Source: Lachnospiraceae bacterium
GTDB lineage: Bacteria > Bacillota > Clostridia > Lachnospirales > Lachnospiraceae
Length of the DNA: 48,567 bases
Reading direction: 5' to 3'
Assembly (NCBI GenBank): GCA_024698075.1
Contig: JAILRP010000021.1
Location: 1-48,567 of the forward strand
The number at the start of each line of letters is the position of its first letter. Position 1 is the stretch's first letter. Positions 28,896 through 46,691 of this stretch are shown here, piece by piece. The notes below the pieces were generated by a model. The model worked only from the letters and a program-made list of their open reading frames with translations, was not told the origin of the DNA and did not search any database. A program made the translations under genes and the position numbers.

Positions 28896-29621
28896 ATGGA
28901 CGGATACCGCAGGGAACTGAAATTCATAATATCCGATGCATTGATGCTCGACATCAGAAACCGCATCGGAACTATCATGAAACCTGATGAGCATCAGAGC
29001 AGGGATCATTACCGGGTGAGGAGCATATATTTTGACAATCCTTCACATACGTGCATAAGAGAGAACCTTGCCGGGGTGTCCACAAGAGAAAAATACAGGA
29101 TCAGGACATATGACTGCGACAGCCGGACTATCATTGCCGAGATCAAGATAAGGCACAGAAGCACGGTATCAAAAATGAGCACTCCGATAGACACCGCTCT
29201 GTTTGACGCCCTTATATCCGGAGACCGTGAAAACGCCGCAGGTGTGCTCAGATCCCGCATCGATGAAAGCGGGGCGGCCGGATCCGGAAAGTCATGCCGT
29301 GTTCTCGAGAAGTACCTTGTAAGGATAGCCTCGGAGGCTTATTCCCCTTCGGTGATGGTCGATTACGAGCGGAGCGCCTATGTTTATCCGGCCGGAAACG
29401 TCCGGATCACTTTTGACAGAAATGTATTTGGATCGCAAGAGTATTCACGCATGTTCGATAATGCACTTACGGGAAGGCCGGCGCTTGACCATGGCCTTCA
29501 TATACTCGAGATCAAGTATGATGAGTTCCTTCCGGATGAGATAAAAGCCGTGCTCGGCGGGATGCAGCTTGAGGCCTCGAGCAGTTCGAAATATGCCGCC
29601 TGCGCCCTTCGGTTCATATGA
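28896..29621 (+). CDS. VTC-domain polyphosphate polymerase-like protein
   Basis: A 241-residue protein that is essentially one VTC domain; in yeast Vtc4 this tunnel-shaped domain makes polyphosphate from ATP. Seen: YRRELKFII at the start, YRVRSIYFDNP, REKYRIRTYD, EIKIRHRSTVSK, VMVDYERSAYV, RITFDRNV and the C-terminal HILEIKYDEFLP with a Glu that fits a metal ligand. The basic and acidic tunnel residues all look present. No membrane segment is fused; the membrane partners are probably encoded downstream (DUF4956 protein). AAGGAC precedes the start. Whether the product is polyphosphate is not shown by sequence. Confidence 0.87.
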   Translation: MDGYRRELKFIISDALMLDIRNRIGTIMKPDEHQSRDHYRVRSIYFDNPSHTCIRENLAGVSTREKYRIRTYDCDSRTIIAEIKIRHRSTVSKMSTPIDTALFDALISGDRENAAGVLRSRIDESGAAGSGKSCRVLEKYLVRIASEAYSPSVMVDYERSAYVYPAGNVRITFDRNVFGSQEYSRMFDNALTGRPALDHGLHILEIKYDEFLPDEIKAVLGGMQLEASSSSKYAACALRFI

Positions 29622-29689: not shown

Positions 29690-32257
29690 ATGGGTGAAAT
29701 ACTGTATGATCTGGTGATCAGGCCGATCTTTCTGCTGCTTGAGATCGTTTTCAAAACGGCTTATTCAGTCTGCGGCGATCCCGGAATATCGATAATAGCC
29801 GTCAGCCTTACGGTAAACATACTCATTCTGCCCCTGTATCTGAAGTCTGATGCACTCACTGCCGCAGACCGTGCCATACAGAAGAAGATGGAGCCGTGGA
29901 TCAGGCACATACGAAGGACTTTCAAGGGTGACGAGCGTTTCATGATCCTATCCGAATATTACAGGCAGAACGACTATCAGCCGTATTATGTTCTGAGGAG
30001 TTCGCTGTCGCTGCTGCTTCAGATTCCTTTTTTTATCGCCGCTTACAAGTTCCTGTCGGAGCTTCAGCTTCTTCACGGCGTGCCTTTCCTGATGATAAAG
30101 GATCTTGGCAGTCCCGATGCCATAATCCGTGCAGGAGGTCTTTCAATAAACCTTCTTCCGGTCCTGATGACGGCGATAAACCTTGTATCTTCGGCCATAT
30201 ATACGAAGGGCGGCCCGCTTAGGGAGAAGATTCAGACGATAGCACTGGCCCTCGTATTCCTGGTCCTTTTGTATAACAGCCCTTCGGGACTTGTTTTTTA
30301 CTGGACTCTCAATAATCTTTTCTCGCTCGGCAAGAACGCGGTCATGTCTGCCATGGAGCATGCGGGCCCTGTACGGACGAAAAAGAAGGCAGAACATGGC
30401 GTTGATGAGCACTATGGCGGTATCTGGCTGTCATCATCGCTCTTCATCTCGGCATTTATCGGAATGGTCATTCCGCTGTCGGTCATCATTTCATCGCCGC
30501 TTGAGTTCATAAAGCGCGGTAAATATGCCGACCCGACGCTGTATGTATATTCTGAGGCGGCTACGGCCGCGGGATTTTTCCTAATATGGTCCGGAGTCAT
30601 ATTCTACCTCGGGACCCCCTTTTTCAGGCGTATTTATGCAAAAGCATGCATGTGCGCGGCGGCCGCCTTTTTTATTGATTTTATGGTCTTCGACCGCAAT
30701 TTCGGTGTGCTTTTTGAAGACCTGAAATTTTCGGAGACCTTCGGTTATTCGCCGTATGAGATGATACTGAACCTGGCAACGCTGCTTTTTGCCGTACTGA
30801 TACTGATGATCCTGGTAAAAGACCACAGGCGCGGCGTAGTCCTGGCAATGTCGATACTTGCAGTAAGTTCCATAGCCGTATCGGTATACCAGACGGCCAC
30901 CACGTCCGTGAAAGTCAGAAGATCGGAGAACTACTGGTCATCCACATATGTTGCCGAAAAGTTCGATCCTGTGCTCAGGTTTTCAAGGACAGGGAAAAAT
31001 GTAGTCTTACTCGTGCTTGACAAGGCAATAGGCGGATATTTCCCGTATATAATGGGGGAAAAGCCCGAAATTGAAGATGAATTTTCGGGTTTCGTCTTTT
31101 ACCCCAATACTGTGTCGACATCCGCATGCACGAGCCAGGGGATCCCCGCTCTTTACGGCGGATATGAATATACGGCATGGGCCGTGAACCGGAGGGCAGA
31201 GGATACCTTAAAGGATAAGATGAATGAGGCCCTCACGGTCCTTCCGAGGCTTTTTTCGGATGCCGGCTATGACAGCGTGATATGCGACATACCATATGGA
31301 AACTTTAAGGATGACGGAGATCTTTCCATATATGATGATATTGGAGGATGCGACTCTTTCTGGCTCACAACCGGCATATATTCGGGTCTTCTTACCGAGG
31401 ATGAGCTGAAGGCGACCGATCCGGACCGCCAGGTCCGCAATTTCTTCTGCTACAGCTTATGCAGGGCGGTTCCGCTTGTCATGCAGAAGCTGATGTATGA
31501 CGACGGAAACTACAATGCGCTCTACCCGAACAGGGTGACCAATTCGTTCGCAAACAGTTATGTTGTGATGAAGCACCTTGGTGAGCTTACGAGCATAACG
31601 GATGACGGTGCGGGGGAGCTTATTGTCATGCAGAACTATATGACGCATGAGCCGACATTCCTCGATCCGCCGGATTACCGGCTGACATCGGTCACCGAGC
31701 ACAACAGCACCGAGGGCAGAAACATGACGATAGGCGGCAGCACGCTCCTTCTGGATAACGATGACCGTCTCAAAAGTTATGACTCGAACGTATCGGCATA
31801 TCTTTTTGTCGCAGATTGGCTAAAAAAGCTTAAAGAAGAGGGAGTCTACGACAATACGAGGATAATCATAACCGCCGACCACGGATACGCTTACGGCCAG
31901 ATGGAAAGCCTTGTCATGGATGACATAGGGCTTGATGCCGAGGCGGTAAACCCCATCCTTCTCGTGAAGGACTTTGGATCCGAGGGTAAGCTCAGGCAGG
32001 ACGATTCGTTCATGACAACTGCGGATGTGCCTGCAATGGCTATGGAGGGACTGATAGATTATCCCGTCAATCCGTATACGGGCGCATTGATATCGAGTGA
32101 GCAGAAAACAGAGGGCCCGCTCATAATAAATGCATCAACAAACGGGATCACGGGACATCACGGCGAATATACCTATGACATTTCCGACAGCCGCTGGTAT
32201 ACGGTGAAAGACAGCATATTCAGCAGGGAAAACTGGGAAATCTATAATGACCAATGA
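29690..32257 (+). CDS. YidC/Oxa1 domain fused to LtaS/sulfatase-like domain
   Basis: An 855-residue protein. Residues 1-220 look like a five-helix YidC/Oxa1 core: VNILILPLYLKSD matches the first YidC helix, LQIPFFIAAY the second, and PSGLVFYWTLNNLFSLGKN the last. The groove Arg of Firmicute YidC2 aligns with Asn43. More helices follow (about 245-400), then an extracytoplasmic alkaline-phosphatase-superfamily domain (about 435-790). It has VVLLVLDKA (Asp443 as metal ligand), STSACTSQGIPALYGG (Thr or Ser nucleophile candidates 474-482), ITADHGYAYGQ (Asp730-His731) and HHGEY near the end. It may be a phospho-transferase or hydrolase for an envelope polymer whose membrane part derives from YidC. 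Confidence 0.88.
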   Translation: MGEILYDLVIRPIFLLLEIVFKTAYSVCGDPGISIIAVSLTVNILILPLYLKSDALTAADRAIQKKMEPWIRHIRRTFKGDERFMILSEYYRQNDYQPYYVLRSSLSLLLQIPFFIAAYKFLSELQLLHGVPFLMIKDLGSPDAIIRAGGLSINLLPVLMTAINLVSSAIYTKGGPLREKIQTIALALVFLVLLYNSPSGLVFYWTLNNLFSLGKNAVMSAMEHAGPVRTKKKAEHGVDEHYGGIWLSSSLFISAFIGMVIPLSVIISSPLEFIKRGKYADPTLYVYSEAATAAGFFLIWSGVIFYLGTPFFRRIYAKACMCAAAAFFIDFMVFDRNFGVLFEDLKFSETFGYSPYEMILNLATLLFAVLILMILVKDHRRGVVLAMSILAVSSIAVSVYQTATTSVKVRRSENYWSSTYVAEKFDPVLRFSRTGKNVVLLVLDKAIGGYFPYIMGEKPEIEDEFSGFVFYPNTVSTSACTSQGIPALYGGYEYTAWAVNRRAEDTLKDKMNEALTVLPRLFSDAGYDSVICDIPYGNFKDDGDLSIYDDIGGCDSFWLTTGIYSGLLTEDELKATDPDRQVRNFFCYSLCRAVPLVMQKLMYDDGNYNALYPNRVTNSFANSYVVMKHLGELTSITDDGAGELIVMQNYMTHEPTFLDPPDYRLTSVTEHNSTEGRNMTIGGSTLLLDNDDRLKSYDSNVSAYLFVADWLKKLKEEGVYDNTRIIITADHGYAYGQMESLVMDDIGLDAEAVNPILLVKDFGSEGKLRQDDSFMTTADVPAMAMEGLIDYPVNPYTGALISSEQKTEGPLIINASTNGITGHHGEYTYDISDSRWYTVKDSIFSRENWEIYNDQ

Positions 32258-32284: not shown

Positions 32285-32959
32285 ATGAGTTTTAAGGACT
32301 TAATCTCAAACAATTTCATCAGCGGATTTTCGGGGGCGGACATTACCGTGGCGGAGATAATCACGACTCTCGGCGTGACTTTCCTCATAGCATTGTATCT
32401 GTTCGCGGTATACCGTTTTATCACCGAGAACGCGTTTTATTCAAAGGAATACAATATTTCGATGGTCGCCATGGCCATTGTCACGGCGGGGATAATCCTC
32501 GCGATGCAGTCGAGCCTTGTTATCTCCCTCGGCATGGTCGGCGCCCTTTCGATCGTAAGGTTCAGAACCGCGATAAAAGAGCCCATAGACCTGCTGTTCC
32601 TGTTCTGGTCCATAGGAACCGGAATAATATGCGGGGCGGGACTTTATAAGGTGGCAGTCGTCCTGGCGGTATGCGTGACGATCGCCATAGCGCTCCTCAA
32701 GTTCATTCCCGAGAGCAGGACGGGGATGATGCTGTTTGTAGGGTCGGCCGGAAAAATACCGTCAGAGGAACTCTACGGGGCGGTCAAGCCATACGGAAGG
32801 ATCGTCAGCGTAAAGTCGGTCAACATGACTTCTTCGGGCACCAATGCGGTCTATGAGGTCAGGGTTAAGATGGCCGATGAGATGGTTCGGGCCGTCAAGG
32901 GCATAGAAGGAGTTGACAGCGTATCGCTTGTCAGCCATGACGGAGAATTCAGAGGTTAG
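32285..32959 (+). CDS. DUF4956 family membrane protein
   Basis: A 224-residue protein with about four membrane helices (roughly 20-45, 58-85, 102-118, 120-140) and a soluble C-terminal domain. Seen: GMVGALSIVRFRTAIKEPIDLLFLFW, the signature of DUF4956. The C-terminal part (about 150-224) resembles a small ferredoxin-like fold. DUF4956 genes are frequently found beside VTC-domain and CotH genes, as here, so it may be the membrane partner of the VTC enzyme. CGGAGG precedes the start. It ends 3 bases before the CotH gene. Confidence 0.87.
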   Translation: MSFKDLISNNFISGFSGADITVAEIITTLGVTFLIALYLFAVYRFITENAFYSKEYNISMVAMAIVTAGIILAMQSSLVISLGMVGALSIVRFRTAIKEPIDLLFLFWSIGTGIICGAGLYKVAVVLAVCVTIAIALLKFIPESRTGMMLFVGSAGKIPSEELYGAVKPYGRIVSVKSVNMTSSGTNAVYEVRVKMADEMVRAVKGIEGVDSVSLVSHDGEFRG

Positions 32960-32962
32960 ATA

Positions 32963-34567
32963 TTGGCAAAGAGGTTCTTATTTCTGCTAACAGCATGCTT
33001 TGTCGGAGCCGCTGCGCTTGCAGGGGCTCTTTTGTGTGAAAGAAAGAGCGATATCAGGGCTCAGCGACCAACTCTTGAATGCACAGATGAGACGATACTT
33101 CAGCTTCCGTACTTCGATCTGCTTGCAGCAGGCAACGAAAACCGGCATCTTCCGACCGATGTCGAAAGCTACAGCTTAGGTGACGGGATGATCCACCTCA
33201 TACTTCCCGAAGCTGTATCACCGAACGCAGTCGCCGTGTACATAAGGGATAAGGAAGGGAATTATCTTGCAAGGCGCGTGTATGATTTTACCGGAAAGGT
33301 GATGATAGGGCCATGGGAAGTGGTGCTCGAGCATCCGTCAATTCCGACGGTCTATTTTGAGTCTGAGGACCCTTCCGTATTTTCCGCATTGAATGCTTCT
33401 GCAGACAAGAATATCATCTGCGATGGTAATATGCACATATGTGTAGGCGAGGAAGATTCGAAAGAGAACGGATGGTACAGGGAATACCTGAGTGCATCCG
33501 GAGACGGCTCTTATAAGACCACTGCATCGCTTCAGGGCAGGGGAAGCACGAGCTGGGATGTGGACCGTAAAAGATCTTACAGCTTGAGGCTGAAGAGGTC
33601 AGAGAACCTTCTCGGGCTCGGTAAGAACAGAAACTGGAACCTTATCGGCAATGTTTTTGACCGGTCGCTCATCAGGAATGTTACGTTTAATGAGATAAGC
33701 AGGCGTGCCGGGATAGACTACCAGCCGAACATGATAGATGTCAACCTGTATGTGGACGGGGTCTATCAGGGTGTTTACACGCTTACGACCAAGATTAGCC
33801 GCAATAAGAACAGGGTTGCCTTAAGGGGCGGTGACTATTTTTACAGGCTTGACCCTCCGGAACCCGAAAATCCCATCACATATGAGTCCATGGCATGGTT
33901 TGGCGATGGGCTTGCCTATCCGGCGGCAGACCTCCTGTATCCGGAAATGCCATCAGGGAGGGAATTTGCGGAAGCATCGGATATCCTCCAAACATTCATT
34001 ACCGCAAGAGACGATCCGAATGTCCCGGGGTTTGATGAGATATGCGATCTTGACTCGCTTGCGAGATATTATTGGATACAGGAAGCATCAATGAATTTTG
34101 ATGCCTGTTCGAGGAGCACGTATTTCTATTATCTCAGAAACGACTCAAAAGTGCATTTTGGACCAGTATGGGACCTTGACCTTACCCTGGGTTCCCCATA
34201 TGAAAAGGAGAAGGTTGATTTTTCCGGACCGGAAGGCTGGAAGATAAGGGAACTCGGATGGTATTCCCGGCTTTTCATGAGACCGGAGTTTGTCAGTGCG
34301 GTATATGATGTCTACTATAACGGGGGCGTCAGGGAAGCACTTCTTGGCGGGACTGCGGAATTTGAGAAGCAGAGGGCGATCCTTGCGGATGAGGGACGGC
34401 TTAACTTTCTGTTCTACGGAAGCCCCATCGAATATGAAGTTCCGACAGACCATGGAAGTGATTACGACAGCTACTGTGATAACATGATAGATTTTTATAA
34501 GAAAAGGGTTCAGTGGATAGATGCCGAGATGGAGGCCGGCCGGGGCACGGGGGTAACTTCACCTTGA
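32963..34567 (+). CDS. CotH-type kinase family protein, secreted/membrane anchored
   Basis: A 534-residue protein with an N-terminal signal anchor (FLFLLTACFVGAAALAGALL) and an extracellular CotH domain (about 170-520). Seen: LQGRGSTSWDVDRKRSYSLRLKR, NWNLIGNVFDRSLIRNVTF, YVDGVYQGVYTLTTKI and the active-site block FGPVWDLDLTLGSP. CotH of Bacillus phosphorylates spore-coat proteins using a degenerate kinase fold; related proteins occur outside spores. The start is a TTG with AGAGG 7 bases before it, overlapping the end of the DUF4956 gene. The neighbourhood suggests it modifies an envelope protein. The target is unknown. Confidence 0.88.
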   Translation: MAKRFLFLLTACFVGAAALAGALLCERKSDIRAQRPTLECTDETILQLPYFDLLAAGNENRHLPTDVESYSLGDGMIHLILPEAVSPNAVAVYIRDKEGNYLARRVYDFTGKVMIGPWEVVLEHPSIPTVYFESEDPSVFSALNASADKNIICDGNMHICVGEEDSKENGWYREYLSASGDGSYKTTASLQGRGSTSWDVDRKRSYSLRLKRSENLLGLGKNRNWNLIGNVFDRSLIRNVTFNEISRRAGIDYQPNMIDVNLYVDGVYQGVYTLTTKISRNKNRVALRGGDYFYRLDPPEPENPITYESMAWFGDGLAYPAADLLYPEMPSGREFAEASDILQTFITARDDPNVPGFDEICDLDSLARYYWIQEASMNFDACSRSTYFYYLRNDSKVHFGPVWDLDLTLGSPYEKEKVDFSGPEGWKIRELGWYSRLFMRPEFVSAVYDVYYNGGVREALLGGTAEFEKQRAILADEGRLNFLFYGSPIEYEVPTDHGSDYDSYCDNMIDFYKKRVQWIDAEMEAGRGTGVTSP

Positions 34568-44286: not shown

Positions 44287-45246
44287 TCACCTTCCGCCCA
44301 TCCACCTGTTTATGTCGTCTGCAAGCTGCATCGTTCTAACTTCGGTGGCGTCTTTTTTAAGATGCAGGTATGTATCGTAAAAATACTCATAAGGGTACAT
44401 GTAGTCCGTAAAATCCGAGATGACGGTGCAGTCAAGGCTGTCTTCGAGCTCTGCCTGAAATCCTGCGATGTCAGCCTCATCAAAATCGGAATATCTGCCG
44501 TACGCTATCGGATATCCGGCGATAAGAAGCGATGCTCCCCGGCTGCTTACATATTCATTGTACCTGTTAAGGCGCGACATGCACATCCTGCCCGTCTTGG
44601 GGGCTTTTACGGGATGCGCCGATGTGTCGGAAAAATACTCTTCCGGATCCATCTGCTTTTCGGCGGGCTTAAATATCACATCCCCATACTCGTTGAACGC
44701 ACTTCTCGAGTAGCTTCCGCCTTCATCTTTGTTGCCGTCTTTCGTAAGCCAAAGCGAGAATGATTTCCGAAGATAGTTCGGATATGCCGCGAGCATGCCG
44801 GGCATGTCGCGAAGCCGCAGTATCCCGAGCATTTCGGGATGGTTGTCGATGGTTATCCATGCAAGCGACGGACTGGGGATGTCATCCTCGTCATCATAAT
44901 ACGTATGGCAGACGATGACGAGGTCTCCTTCTTTGATGTTCATCTTGGCAAACTCTTCATGGAATGCGTTTCCGAGCCCTGCATGAAGACCGAGATTGAC
45001 GACGGGAAGTCCCGTTTCCTTTTCAAGAAGGGCGGAATCGATCCCGAATGGAAGGTTCGAGTTGCCTACAAGGATGATCTTGGGGCTTTCTGTGGCCCGA
45101 AGCCTTGCGGCCTTATCGAGCGCAGATGCCTGGTAATTGTATCCGTACTGGCTCCCGGCGGCGAAGAAGTCGAGCGCTGCCGCCAGGAACATGCACAGGC
45201 TGACGGCGAGCAGCAGTATTAAGATTTTTCCGATAAATTTTTTCAT
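44287..45246 (-). CDS. SGNH/DltD-like membrane-anchored protein, MBOAT partner
   Basis: A 319-residue protein with an N-terminal membrane anchor (ILILLLAVSLCMFLAAALDFFA) and an extracellular SGNH-like domain. Seen: ILVGNSNLPFGID (block I with the Ser), VVNLGLHAGLGN, and FYDTYLHLKKDAT (Asp-His pair). Such proteins receive the acyl group exported by an MBOAT protein and pass it to a polymer. The upstream MBOAT gene ends 5 bases before it, which supports the pairing. The start at 45246 (MKKFIGKI) gives a proper anchor; the frame upstream lies inside the MBOAT gene. Confidence 0.85.
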   Translation of the reverse strand: MKKFIGKILILLLAVSLCMFLAAALDFFAAGSQYGYNYQASALDKAARLRATESPKIILVGNSNLPFGIDSALLEKETGLPVVNLGLHAGLGNAFHEEFAKMNIKEGDLVIVCHTYYDDEDDIPSPSLAWITIDNHPEMLGILRLRDMPGMLAAYPNYLRKSFSLWLTKDGNKDEGGSYSRSAFNEYGDVIFKPAEKQMDPEEYFSDTSAHPVKAPKTGRMCMSRLNRYNEYVSSRGASLLIAGYPIAYGRYSDFDEADIAGFQAELEDSLDCTVISDFTDYMYPYEYFYDTYLHLKKDATEVRTMQLADDINRWMGGR

Positions 45247-45251
45247 ATCCG

Positions 45252-46691
45252 TCAAAACTGAAAATATATGAACTCCGTTGAGTTGGATGCCGGAAGATGG
45301 AATATCGTCCAGACGGTCAGAATTATGTAAACCAGCCACCGTACCGCCGTCTTTTTGGAGGAGATGGCGGTTATCACATCTGTTTTTAATGAATACCAGT
45401 CAAATGCCGCAAGAGCTGCGACCGAGACGGCCAGAAATGCGAACGGAAGCTTGGCAAGTCCTATCGAGATGAATCCGCTCTGAAGATATCCGACCGGGGA
45501 TGATGCGCCGTCAAACATGTGCCCTATCATATAGAACGCATCGCCTATGGAGTTTGCCGCAAAAAATACCCAGGCTATGCTGCAGAATATGAACACGCAT
45601 ATGATGCGCAGTGCGCGCACGATGCCGGTGCTCGTCCTCTTTTTTGCGGGGACGAGGATGTTTTCAAGTATCTGTGCCAGCCCGTGGATAAAGCCCCAGA
45701 AGACAAACGTCCAGTTTGCACCATGCCACAGGCCGCTTATAAGGAATGTTATGAGAAGGTTGATGCAGGTCCGGATACGTCCCCTGCGGTTGCCGCCGAG
45801 AGGGATATAAACGTAATCGCGAAACCATGTCGAGAGGGAGATGTGCCACCTGCTCCAGAATTCGCGTACGCTCTGTGAAAAGTACGGGCAGGAGAAATTC
45901 TTCATAAGGTCGATGCCCATAAGCTTTGCGCAGCCTATGGCTATATCGGAATAACCGGAAAAATCACAGTATATCTGCACCGTAAAAAGGACGGCGGCTA
46001 GAACGAGCGAGAATCCCGAAAAATCATGGGGCCTGTCGAACACCTTGCTGATATAAAGCGCTATCGTGTCGGCTATGGCTATCTTCTTGAAATATCCCCA
46101 TGCCATCTGCTTGAGCCCGTACGTCGCCTTTGCCCGGTCAAAATTCCGGAACATCTTTATCTGCGGCAGGAGGCTTTCCGCTCTTCCTATGGGGCCGGCC
46201 ATTATCTGGGGAAAGAACATGGTAAATGCGGCATATTTTCCGAAATGGTGTTCGGCGGGGCACTTATCCTTATAAACGTCAATGACATAGCCGAGTGTCT
46301 GAAACGTATAGAACGATATGCCTATGGGAAGAAGGACGTTCAGCACCACGGGGTTTAACGGCATGCCGAAGAAAGTAAATACTTCCGATATGCTCGTGCT
46401 GAAAAAATTAAAGTATTTGAATACGAAAAGAACGCTGAGGCAAAGTACCAGAGCGCATAATAGAACTGCCCTGCGTCTTTTTGGAGATGCTGTTCTTTCC
46501 ATGAGGATCCCCGCGGCAAAAGATACGGCTGTGGCAAAAAGCAGAAGTACCACGTAGACGGGATTCCGGCTCATATAGAACCAGCAGCTTGCCAAAACCA
46601 GCACGACCCAGCGGAACCTCCCCGGACAAAGCCAGTACACGGCGAAGGCTATGGGCAGAAATATGGCAAATTCTAAGGAGTTAAAAAGCAT
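45252..46691 (-). CDS. MBOAT family O-acyltransferase (AlgI/DltB-like)
   Basis: A polytopic membrane protein of 479 residues. Seen: SLEFAIFLPIAFAVYWL at the N-terminus, LPIGISFYTFQTLGYVIDVY, MFFPQIMAGPIGR, VQIYCDFSGYSDIAIG, REFWSRWHISLSTWFRDYVYIPLGG and LWHGANWTFVFWG with the invariant His. It would move acyl groups, usually acetyl, across the membrane for O-acylation of a surface glycan, handing over to the SGNH protein downstream. It heads a four-gene minus-strand operon. No SD precedes the ATG. Confidence 0.96.
   Translation of the reverse strand: MLFNSLEFAIFLPIAFAVYWLCPGRFRWVVLVLASCWFYMSRNPVYVVLLLFATAVSFAAGILMERTASPKRRRAVLLCALVLCLSVLFVFKYFNFFSTSISEVFTFFGMPLNPVVLNVLLPIGISFYTFQTLGYVIDVYKDKCPAEHHFGKYAAFTMFFPQIMAGPIGRAESLLPQIKMFRNFDRAKATYGLKQMAWGYFKKIAIADTIALYISKVFDRPHDFSGFSLVLAAVLFTVQIYCDFSGYSDIAIGCAKLMGIDLMKNFSCPYFSQSVREFWSRWHISLSTWFRDYVYIPLGGNRRGRIRTCINLLITFLISGLWHGANWTFVFWGFIHGLAQILENILVPAKKRTSTGIVRALRIICVFIFCSIAWVFFAANSIGDAFYMIGHMFDGASSPVGYLQSGFISIGLAKLPFAFLAVSVAALAAFDWYSLKTDVITAISSKKTAVRWLVYIILTVWTIFHLPASNSTEFIYFQF

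What the first reader, a model, noticed from the sequence alone, without database searches (positions are those of the whole stretch)
29690..32257. YidC/Oxa1 core fused to an extracellular LtaS/sulfatase-like domain, with the insertase Arg replaced by Asn
One uninterrupted frame joins a YidC-like five-helix core (1-220), further helices (245-400) and an alkaline-phosphatase-superfamily domain (435-790). In Firmicute YidC2 the groove Arg precedes LILPL; here the same position is Asn43 (VNILILPL). The YidC fold may have been recruited as a membrane platform or lipid/polymer channel for the extracellular enzyme, not as a protein insertase. Automated pipelines are likely to label this protein simply as YidC, hiding the catalytic half.
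Basis: partly seen in the sequence, partly recalled or inferred. Interest (0 to 1): 0.85.

Follow-up and report, generated by a model that had tools for sequence, protein, structure and literature searches.

The report
YidC-fused surface headgroup transferase
A bacterial gene joins a YidC-type membrane module to an extracellular phosphotransferase, and the genes beside its relatives suggest that it helps carry choline- or phosphonate-type groups across the membrane onto cell-surface molecules, a step reported as unknown for phosphonates.

Summary
The 855-codon frame joins a YidC fold (1-224), five more helices and an LtaS/EptA-type alkaline-phosphatase-superfamily (AP) domain with D444, T481, H653, D730 and H731 in place. 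It is no frameshift: 45 non-redundant loci carry the fusion, mostly Lachnospiraceae.

The Arg-to-Asn argument fails: fusions conserve N or Q there, but ordinary YidC proteins of the same genus have Tyr (15 of 15 fetched).

Context points to the function. In 27 of 45 loci a Glyphos_transf gene (PF04464) lies within 20 bp; 18 of 45 hold PEP-mutase (phosphonate) or choline-kinase genes nearby. A second architecture swaps partners: YidC fused to Glyphos_transf, the AP enzyme separate. Genome G036 has a phosphonate cluster without a fusion; its only fusion is the window type.

Best reading: part of a transmembrane decoration system. Cytosolic Glyphos_transf puts the headgroup on a lipid, the YidC domain helps it cross, the outer domain transfers it. 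Outer transferase: well supported by sequence and fold. Pathway link: supported by context, but no Glyphos_transf nearby in 13 of 45 loci, the window included. Lipid crossing by YidC: inferred, untested.

In the window the gene sits among VTC, DUF4956 and CotH genes, an arrangement found in 3 loci.

The parts
29690..32257 (+). YidC-AP fusion gene, 855 aa
29690..30361 (+). YidC/Oxa1 domain (residues 1-224), five-helix core plus cytoplasmic hairpin
   Evidence: Pfam 60KD_IMP; AlphaFold2 and Foldseek to YidC
29816..29818 (+). codon of N43, at the position of the groove Arg of E. coli/B. halodurans YidC; N 40, Q 5 of 45 fusion rows
30404..30922 (+). five further helices (239-411), layout of LtaS/EptA-type enzymes
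   Evidence: helices; membership by layout is inference
30974..32086 (+). alkaline-phosphatase-superfamily domain (429-799), predicted to lie outside the cell
   Evidence: Pfam Sulfatase, Foldseek; location inferred
31019..31021 (+). D444, predicted metal ligand: D in 51 of 51 fused and 19 of 20 separate AP proteins (E in 1)
31130..31132 (+). T481, predicted nucleophile: T in 51 of 51 fused and 19 of 20 separate AP proteins (E aligned in 1, L093)
31646..31648 (+). H653, predicted active-site His: H in 48 of 51 (3 gaps) and 20 of 20
31877..31882 (+). D730-H731, predicted metal ligands: 48 of 51 (3 gaps) and 20 of 20
28896..29621 (+). VTC-domain (polyphosphate-polymerase-like) protein, neighbour also in G021 (L026) and G036 (L027)
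32285..32959 (+). DUF4956 protein, neighbour (in G036 a DUF6056 gene lies between)
32963..34567 (+). CotH-kinase-family protein, neighbour; CotH is also the next gene after fusions L048 and L055

Best explanation
The protein is the membrane-crossing and outer, transferring part of a system that decorates a cell-surface polymer or lipid with small phospho- or phosphono-alcohol groups (2-aminoethylphosphonate, choline- or ethanolamine-phosphate). Steps: (1) a cytidylyltransferase makes CMP-AEP or CDP-choline; (2) a cytosolic Glyphos_transf (PF04464; TagB/TagF relatives, recalled) moves the headgroup onto a membrane lipid; (3) the YidC-fold domain gives the polar headgroup a path to the outer leaflet; (4) the outer alkaline-phosphatase-superfamily domain takes the headgroup on T481 and passes it to the surface acceptor. 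Shown here: domain identities, conserved active-site residues, recurrent gene linkage, two alternative fusions of the same three parts. Inferred: outer location of the AP domain, the lipid intermediate, the YidC role, the acceptor. The window copy may have arisen from a phosphonate-cluster copy and may work in trans, perhaps on the product of the VTC/DUF4956/CotH locus; this last part is a guess.
For: Glyphos_transf lies within 20 bp of a fusion in 27 of 45 non-redundant loci and within 6 kb in 32 of 45. The window's genome has one Glyphos_transf, directly beside its second fusion (L025). Six contiguous genes Ppd, YidC-AP, Glyphos, NTP, PEP mutase, AEP transaminase in L025, L028, L029, and the same six in another order in L065; Pfam identities of the L025 genes. 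PEP mutase in 9 of 45 loci, choline-kinase family in 9 of 45, any headgroup-activation gene in 22 of 45. Swapped architecture: YidC-Glyphos in 20 of 397 family genomes at 550 bits or more; an AP-superfamily gene within 2 kb in 15 of 24 such loci, and Pfam Sulfatase genes in three more, one of them below its cut-off (L101) and one about 4.4 kb away (L095). L060 holds the AEP set with the parts re-fused. G036, 99% complete: AEP cluster with no fusion in it (L145), while its only fusion is the window type. AP residues conserved in fused and separate forms. E. coli YidC and other insertases scramble lipids in vitro according to PMC10491306 (preprint; passages). PMC6697681 (search listing; passages) calls the later Pnt steps enigmatic and expects carbohydrate or lipid acceptors.
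Against: No Glyphos_transf in the fetched stretch of 13 of 45 loci: the window, L026, L027, L031, L035, L048, L049, L055, L056, L057, L071, L074, L076; L031, L048 and L076 end close by at a contig end, and the genomes of the window, L026, L027, L071 and L074 have one elsewhere. G250 (94% complete, fusion at a contig end) has no Glyphos_transf match at all. Of 24 YidC-Glyphos loci, six show no AP gene: L036, L039, L085, L086, L089, L094 (L039 and L094 end at the contig end). No lipid intermediate, acceptor or activity has been seen. A housekeeping flippase elsewhere could do the crossing. The tree does not settle whether the two YidC recruitments were independent (AU p 0.174), and one search carried a long-branch warning and an unsettled bootstrap. 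One copy (L056, second gene) lacks the cytoplasmic hairpin of the YidC domain, so the intact domain may not always be needed.
Confidence: 0.5

Rival explanations
1. The YidC domain is only a membrane dock: it holds the cytosolic Glyphos_transf next to the AP enzyme and moves nothing itself; crossing is by another flippase.
For: The cytoplasmic hairpin is strongly conserved in the fusion family (consensus); in the second architecture the YidC domain is fused straight to Glyphos_transf.
Against: Polar residues inside the predicted helices are invariant in the 15 rows of A3 (S39, N43, Y119, N154, T161, N164, Q182, Y204, W205, N208, S212, K215 among them), more than a plain anchor seems to need; in the larger set N43 is Q in 5 of 45. 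By their family names no other translocator lies in the contiguous six-gene core of L025, L028, L029; helices of those genes were not predicted.
Confidence: 0.25
2. The YidC domain still works as a protein insertase or chaperone, dedicated to inserting or folding the attached multi-helix enzyme or a partner.
For: YidC fold with TM-score 0.72; W205 aligns with the Trp of B. halodurans YidC TM5; loss of Arg is not diagnostic.
Against: LtaS/EptA-type enzymes elsewhere are not known to need such a fused partner (recalled); G036, G034 and G011, each 99% complete, have an ordinary YidC hit besides the fusion; the recurrent linkage is to headgroup-activation genes.
Confidence: 0.15
3. The AP domain is a hydrolase (phosphonate or phospholipid diesterase) that recycles or removes headgroups, not a transferase.
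For: Foldseek also ranks phosphonate monoester hydrolases high (rank 2), and the only phmmer matches of the second half are a sulfatase and such hydrolases.
Against: Conserved Thr at the nucleophile place without a CxPxR formylglycine motif (motif recalled) and five preceding helices as in LtaS/EptA; the linked genes are biosynthetic.
Confidence: 0.1

Closest known systems
LtaS / EptA / OpgB / PptA membrane phosphotransferases (alkaline phosphatase superfamily)
   Same: five helices, then an AP-superfamily domain with D444/T481/H653/D730/H731 in the expected order (order of the LtaS residues recalled)
   Different: preceded by a whole YidC domain; many relatives are linked to CDP/CMP-headgroup genes
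YidC/Oxa1 insertases (SpoIIIJ, YidC2)
   Same: fold, five-helix core, cytoplasmic hairpin
   Different: separate group in the trees (100/100); N or Q at the groove position; fused to an enzyme; an extra copy beside an ordinary yidC in G036, G034, G011
Multi-component transmembrane glycosylation (GtrA/GtcA-type; PMC8035078, abstract and section 8 read)
   Same: same logic: cytosolic transferase, lipid intermediate, flippase, outer transferase
   Different: here phospho/phosphono alcohols, Glyphos_transf inside, an AP-superfamily enzyme outside, a YidC-like candidate translocator; none of this is shown biochemically
Pnt phosphonyl tailoring (PMC6697681, passages read)
   Same: PEP mutase, Ppd, AEP transaminase, PntC-like cytidylyltransferase in the cluster of relatives (L025 and others)
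   Different: its passages name LicD-like phosphotransferases or glycosyltransferases nearby; its main text has no occurrence of YidC, sulfatase, alkaline phosphatase, glycerophosphotransferase or flippase
Lic-1 and PptA phosphorylcholine pathways (PMC10434233, passages read)
   Same: choline-kinase and LicC-like genes, and an AP-superfamily transferase
   Different: that paper states that there is no evidence of Lic-1 and PptA coexisting within a species; here related parts are neighbours in several loci, with Glyphos_transf and a YidC domain
CotH / polyphosphate polymerase / DUF4956 / DUF4832 accessory genes of Gram-positive Pel loci (PMC7112168, passages read)
   Same: VTC, DUF4956 and CotH genes beside the window's fusion
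   Different: the YidC-AP gene is inserted; pel genes and DUF4832 were not found among the 20 of 41 window ORFs that I scanned with Pfam

Membership tests
YidC/Oxa1 superfamily (fold) | five-helix YidC core | tested here: met
Protein insertase YidC (function) | inserts membrane proteins / replaces SpoIIIJ | not testable with these tools
   needs complementation
Protein insertase YidC (function) | positively charged groove residue in the first core helix | tested here: not met
   N43; but 15 of 15 fetched ordinary YidC of the genus have Tyr, so the feature does not define insertases in this group
LtaS/EptA-type phosphotransferase | Thr nucleophile and D/H metal ligands | tested here: met
   by alignment and conservation only; no LtaS sequence was aligned, roles recalled
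LtaS/EptA-type phosphotransferase | five membrane helices before an outer domain | tested here: met
   helices in the AlphaFold2 model; that they span the membrane and that the domain lies outside is inferred
LtaS/EptA-type phosphotransferase | headgroup transfer from a lipid donor | not testable with these tools
   needs biochemistry
Type I sulfatase | CxPxR / SxPxR formylglycine motif at the nucleophile | tested here: not met
   CTSQG at 480-484; T481 conserved, 480 variable; motif recalled
Pnt (CMP-phosphonate tailoring) cluster | PEP mutase, Ppd, AEPT and PntC-like cytidylyltransferase together | tested here: met
   for the genome's second copy (L025); not met at the window locus itself
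CotH/PPP/DUF4956 accessory set of Pel loci | CotH kinase, polyphosphate-polymerase-like and DUF4956 genes together | tested here: met
CotH/PPP/DUF4956 accessory set of Pel loci | contiguous with a pel operon | tested here: inconclusive
   20 of 41 window ORFs scanned with Pfam, no pel gene among them; the others were not scanned

The most novel reading that the evidence does not exclude
The YidC fold has been recruited, perhaps twice, as a dedicated translocator for a lipid-linked phosphonate or phosphocholine headgroup; fused either to the outer transferase or to the cytosolic one, it completes another kind of transmembrane surface-decoration system and supplies the missing last steps of bacterial CMP-phosphonate tailoring.
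Probability: 0.35. Interest if true: 0.92.

Novelty: new variant of a known kind. Interest (0 to 1): 0.76.

Why it matters
PMC6697681 calls the steps after CMP-AEP enigmatic (abstract start), and PMC10434233 says that the pathway providing the choline-phosphate donor of PptA remains to be identified (passage). These gene sets bring a cytosolic and an outer transferase together with one shared membrane part, so both questions become testable with a handful of proteins. If the YidC domain moves lipids, it would be a dedicated physiological use of the scrambling activity that PMC10491306 measured in vitro for insertases. The finding also warns that proteins labelled YidC can be surface-tailoring enzymes.

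Tried and rejected
Frameshift or assembly fusion: rejected, the fusion is conserved in many genomes; among the 10 genus genomes G027 (L035) shows a break, described and not mended. 'Arg lost, therefore not an insertase': rejected on the Tyr of the genus's ordinary YidC. Fusion as the cell's only YidC: the window's genome shows no ordinary yidC, but rnpA gives no match either, while G036, G034 and G011 have both kinds, so an assembly gap is likelier. Sulfatase activity: rejected on the missing formylglycine motif. Promoter scan around the gene: 9 found against 11.9 expected, uninformative. Hydropathy alone missed the core helix at 106-123 and was not used for topology. A claim that the two fusion types exclude each other was dropped: 18 and 20 of 397 genomes with one overlap (G058) is about what chance gives (0.9). 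A claim of two independent recruitments was softened (AU p 0.174). The grouping of the window type with the phosphonate-cluster copy L028 (99/99) is in the thinned tree; the fuller tree left it open.

Seven fusion rows were left out of the groove count and trees (45 of 52 used): L035, L048, L050, L057, the second L056, the third L052 and the second L077 copy; of these L057 has N and the second L056 copy has T. Ordinary YidC: 15 of 21 genus hits were fetched. The tree left out L079 and L101 and used 20 of 44 fusions, 16 of 23 YidC-Glyphos, 8 of 15 genus YidC and 24 other YidC rows. The ORF picker missed Glyphos_transf in L064 and L079; one search repeats the count on stop-to-stop frames and recounts it. 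The AP-domain model missed the outer enzymes of L093, L095 and L101, which Pfam found (L101 below the cut-off).

Literature: the ten searches covered only open-access papers, and I saw listings (titles and starts of abstracts; 15 of 33 papers, 12 of 21). No listed title or abstract start described YidC fused to an LtaS/sulfatase-type or Glyphos_transf domain; the three-term search had zero hits. I do not claim that it is nowhere in print.
Full report
What is there. Window 29690-32257 (+) encodes 855 aa without interruption. Pfam gives 60KD_IMP (32-219) and Sulfatase (436-737), both above the curated cut-offs; NCBIfam passes only for YidC. The AlphaFold2 model of the whole protein has mean pLDDT 82.2. 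The N-terminal 237 residues folded alone give a YidC: the eight Foldseek matches with E<=0.001 are all YidC structures, TM-score up to 0.72. The second half (helices 239-268, 282-307, 310-334, 355-378, 380-411, then a mixed alpha/beta domain) matches PbgA/YejM, LtaS, phosphonate monoester hydrolase and other alkaline-phosphatase-superfamily structures. So the gene looks like YidC plus a complete LtaS/EptA-like enzyme. N437, D444, T481, H653, D730 and H731 were checked in 51 fused and 20 separate relatives. Fused: N437, D444 and T481 in 51 of 51; H653, D730 and H731 in 48 of 51, with three gaps (fragments). Separate: N437, H653, D730, H731 in 20 of 20, D444 in 19 (E once), T481 in 19 (E aligned once, L093). 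The formylglycine motif of sulfatases (recalled) is absent.

The groove residue. N43 takes the place of an Arg of E. coli and B. halodurans YidC. In 45 fusion rows the residue is N in 40 and Q in 5; in 24 YidC-Glyphos fusions K in 23 and R in 1; in 15 of 15 ordinary YidC proteins fetched from the same genus (of 21 such hits) it is Tyr; in 24 ordinary YidC of other Bacillota it is K in 12, R in 11 and M in 1. The ordinary gene of G036 lies in dnaA-rnpA-yidC-jag order, read from the translations. The Asn is therefore a conserved family mark, but losing Arg says nothing about insertase activity in this group. Other polar residues within helices are invariant in the 15 YidC domains of A3, compatible with a working hydrophilic groove.

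Distribution. Fusions occur in 10 of 37 genus genomes, G027's being broken; in 18 of 397 family genomes at 300 bits or more; and in 3 of 398 phylum genomes (the window's own, one of the same family, and G746 of another family), a fourth match, G787, being a 244-aa YidC-like frame of 75 bits. Named contigs add several Lachnospiraceae, a Saccharofermentans, a Eubacterium and a Spirochaetaceae record. The window's genome has two fusions, 49% identical.

Neighbourhood. I took stretches around 46 fusion loci (45 after removing a near-copy) and scanned them with models built from Pfam-identified genes (recount). Glyphos_transf is within 20 bp of a fusion in 27 of 45 and within 6 kb in 32 of 45. PEP mutase is present in 9, choline-kinase family in 9, a PntC/LicC-like cytidylyltransferase in 20, any of the activation genes in 22. 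In L025 (the window genome's second copy), L028 and L029 the order is Ppd, fusion, Glyphos, cytidylyltransferase, PEP mutase with a CTP-transferase domain, AEP transaminase; Pfam identities for L025 are. Glyphos_transf is rare: 0 to 3 per genome in the eight genomes checked, so such adjacency can hardly be chance; I computed no formal probability. Thirteen loci have no Glyphos_transf nearby, the window among them; CotH occurs in 6 of 45 (window, L026, L027, L033, L048, L055).

Swapped architecture. In G032, G004 and others a YidC domain is fused to Glyphos_transf (26-214 and 268-544 in L037), and an LtaS-like enzyme is a separate neighbouring gene. Such proteins occur in 20 of 397 family genomes. 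Among 24 loci an AP-superfamily gene lies within 2 kb in 15, and Pfam adds three more with the reservations given; six show none, two of which end at a contig end. PEP mutase is present in 8 of 24, choline kinase in 5 of 24. L060 shows the AEP set with this arrangement. The same three functions thus recur with the YidC domain attached now to the outer, now to the inner transferase. The YidC domains of the two types form separate groups (100/100 and 100/99); the second lies beside the ordinary Lachnospiraceae YidC (99/93), which suggests separate recruitment, but one origin is not rejected (AU p 0.174), and warns of long branches.

The window locus. Here the fusion sits between VTC and DUF4956, with CotH next; G021 has the same order, G036 the same with a DUF6056 gene added. 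A CotH / polyphosphate-polymerase / DUF4956 set is described as an accessory of Gram-positive Pel loci in PMC7112168 (passages). DUF4956 is present in 36 of 37 genus genomes, whereas only three loci have the fusion beside it; the neighbours of the other DUF4956 genes were not examined. The window-type sequences group with the phosphonate-cluster copy L028 in the thinned tree (99/99); the fuller tree leaves this open. G036 is telling: at 99% completeness its phosphonate cluster runs Ppd, Glyphos, cytidylyltransferase, PEP mutase, AEP transaminase with no fusion (L145), and the only fusion found in the genome is the window-type one. The three genomes with the window type all carry a phosphonate cluster (L025, L028, L145). 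G040 likewise has a phosphonate cluster without a fusion (L147) and fusions elsewhere (L071, L074).

Mechanism. A cytosolic transferase that uses CMP/CDP-activated headgroups, and an outer transferase of a superfamily known to take headgroups from phospholipids (PMC10434233, passages), need a lipid carrier that crosses the membrane. In the compact L025-type core the fusion is, by family names, the only membrane protein. E. coli YidC and other Oxa1-family insertases scramble phospholipids in vitro (PMC10491306, passages). The inference that the YidC domain provides the crossing follows from these, but no step of it has been measured. The logic equals that of multi-component transmembrane glycosylation (PMC8035078, section 8) with other chemistry.

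Limits. Function is inferred from context; 13 of 45 loci lack a nearby Glyphos_transf; G250 has no match to it at all; a degenerate YidC domain exists (second gene of L056). In the window locus the donor and acceptor are guesses.

Noticed in passing
L103-L117 (ordinary YidC of the window's genus): The groove position is Tyr in 15 of 15 fetched ordinary YidC proteins of this genus (21 such hits), where other Bacillota mostly have R or K.
   Followed up: partly
L052:3946-12872; L056:2755-8154; L070; L077; L080: Tandem copies of the fusion (three in L052, the last cut by the contig end); in L056 the second copy lacks the YidC cytoplasmic hairpin.
   Followed up: partly
L043:3658-5715: Triple fusion: MobA-like NTP transferase, CTP_transf_like and PEP mutase in 685 aa; PMC6697681 mentions such triple fusions.
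   Followed up: no
window 44287-46691 (-): MBOAT acyltransferase beside a 350-aa protein without Pfam match; a relative of the latter (about 25% identity) lies directly upstream of the fusion in L055.
   Followed up: partly
L101:6909-8660: Radical SAM/SPASM domain fused to CTP_transf_like in a phosphonate locus next to a YidC-Glyphos fusion; possibly another phosphonate chemistry.
   Followed up: no
L098:13543-16575: STT3/PglB-like oligosaccharyltransferase (1010 aa) near a YidC-Glyphos/AP pair.
   Followed up: no
L027:7500-8972: In G036 a DUF6056 protein gene stands between the fusion and DUF4956; absent in the window.
   Followed up: no
L044:4898-6703 and L037:12428-14245: MobA-like NTP transferase fused to a class I/II aminotransferase domain beside these loci; its headgroup is unknown.
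   Followed up: no
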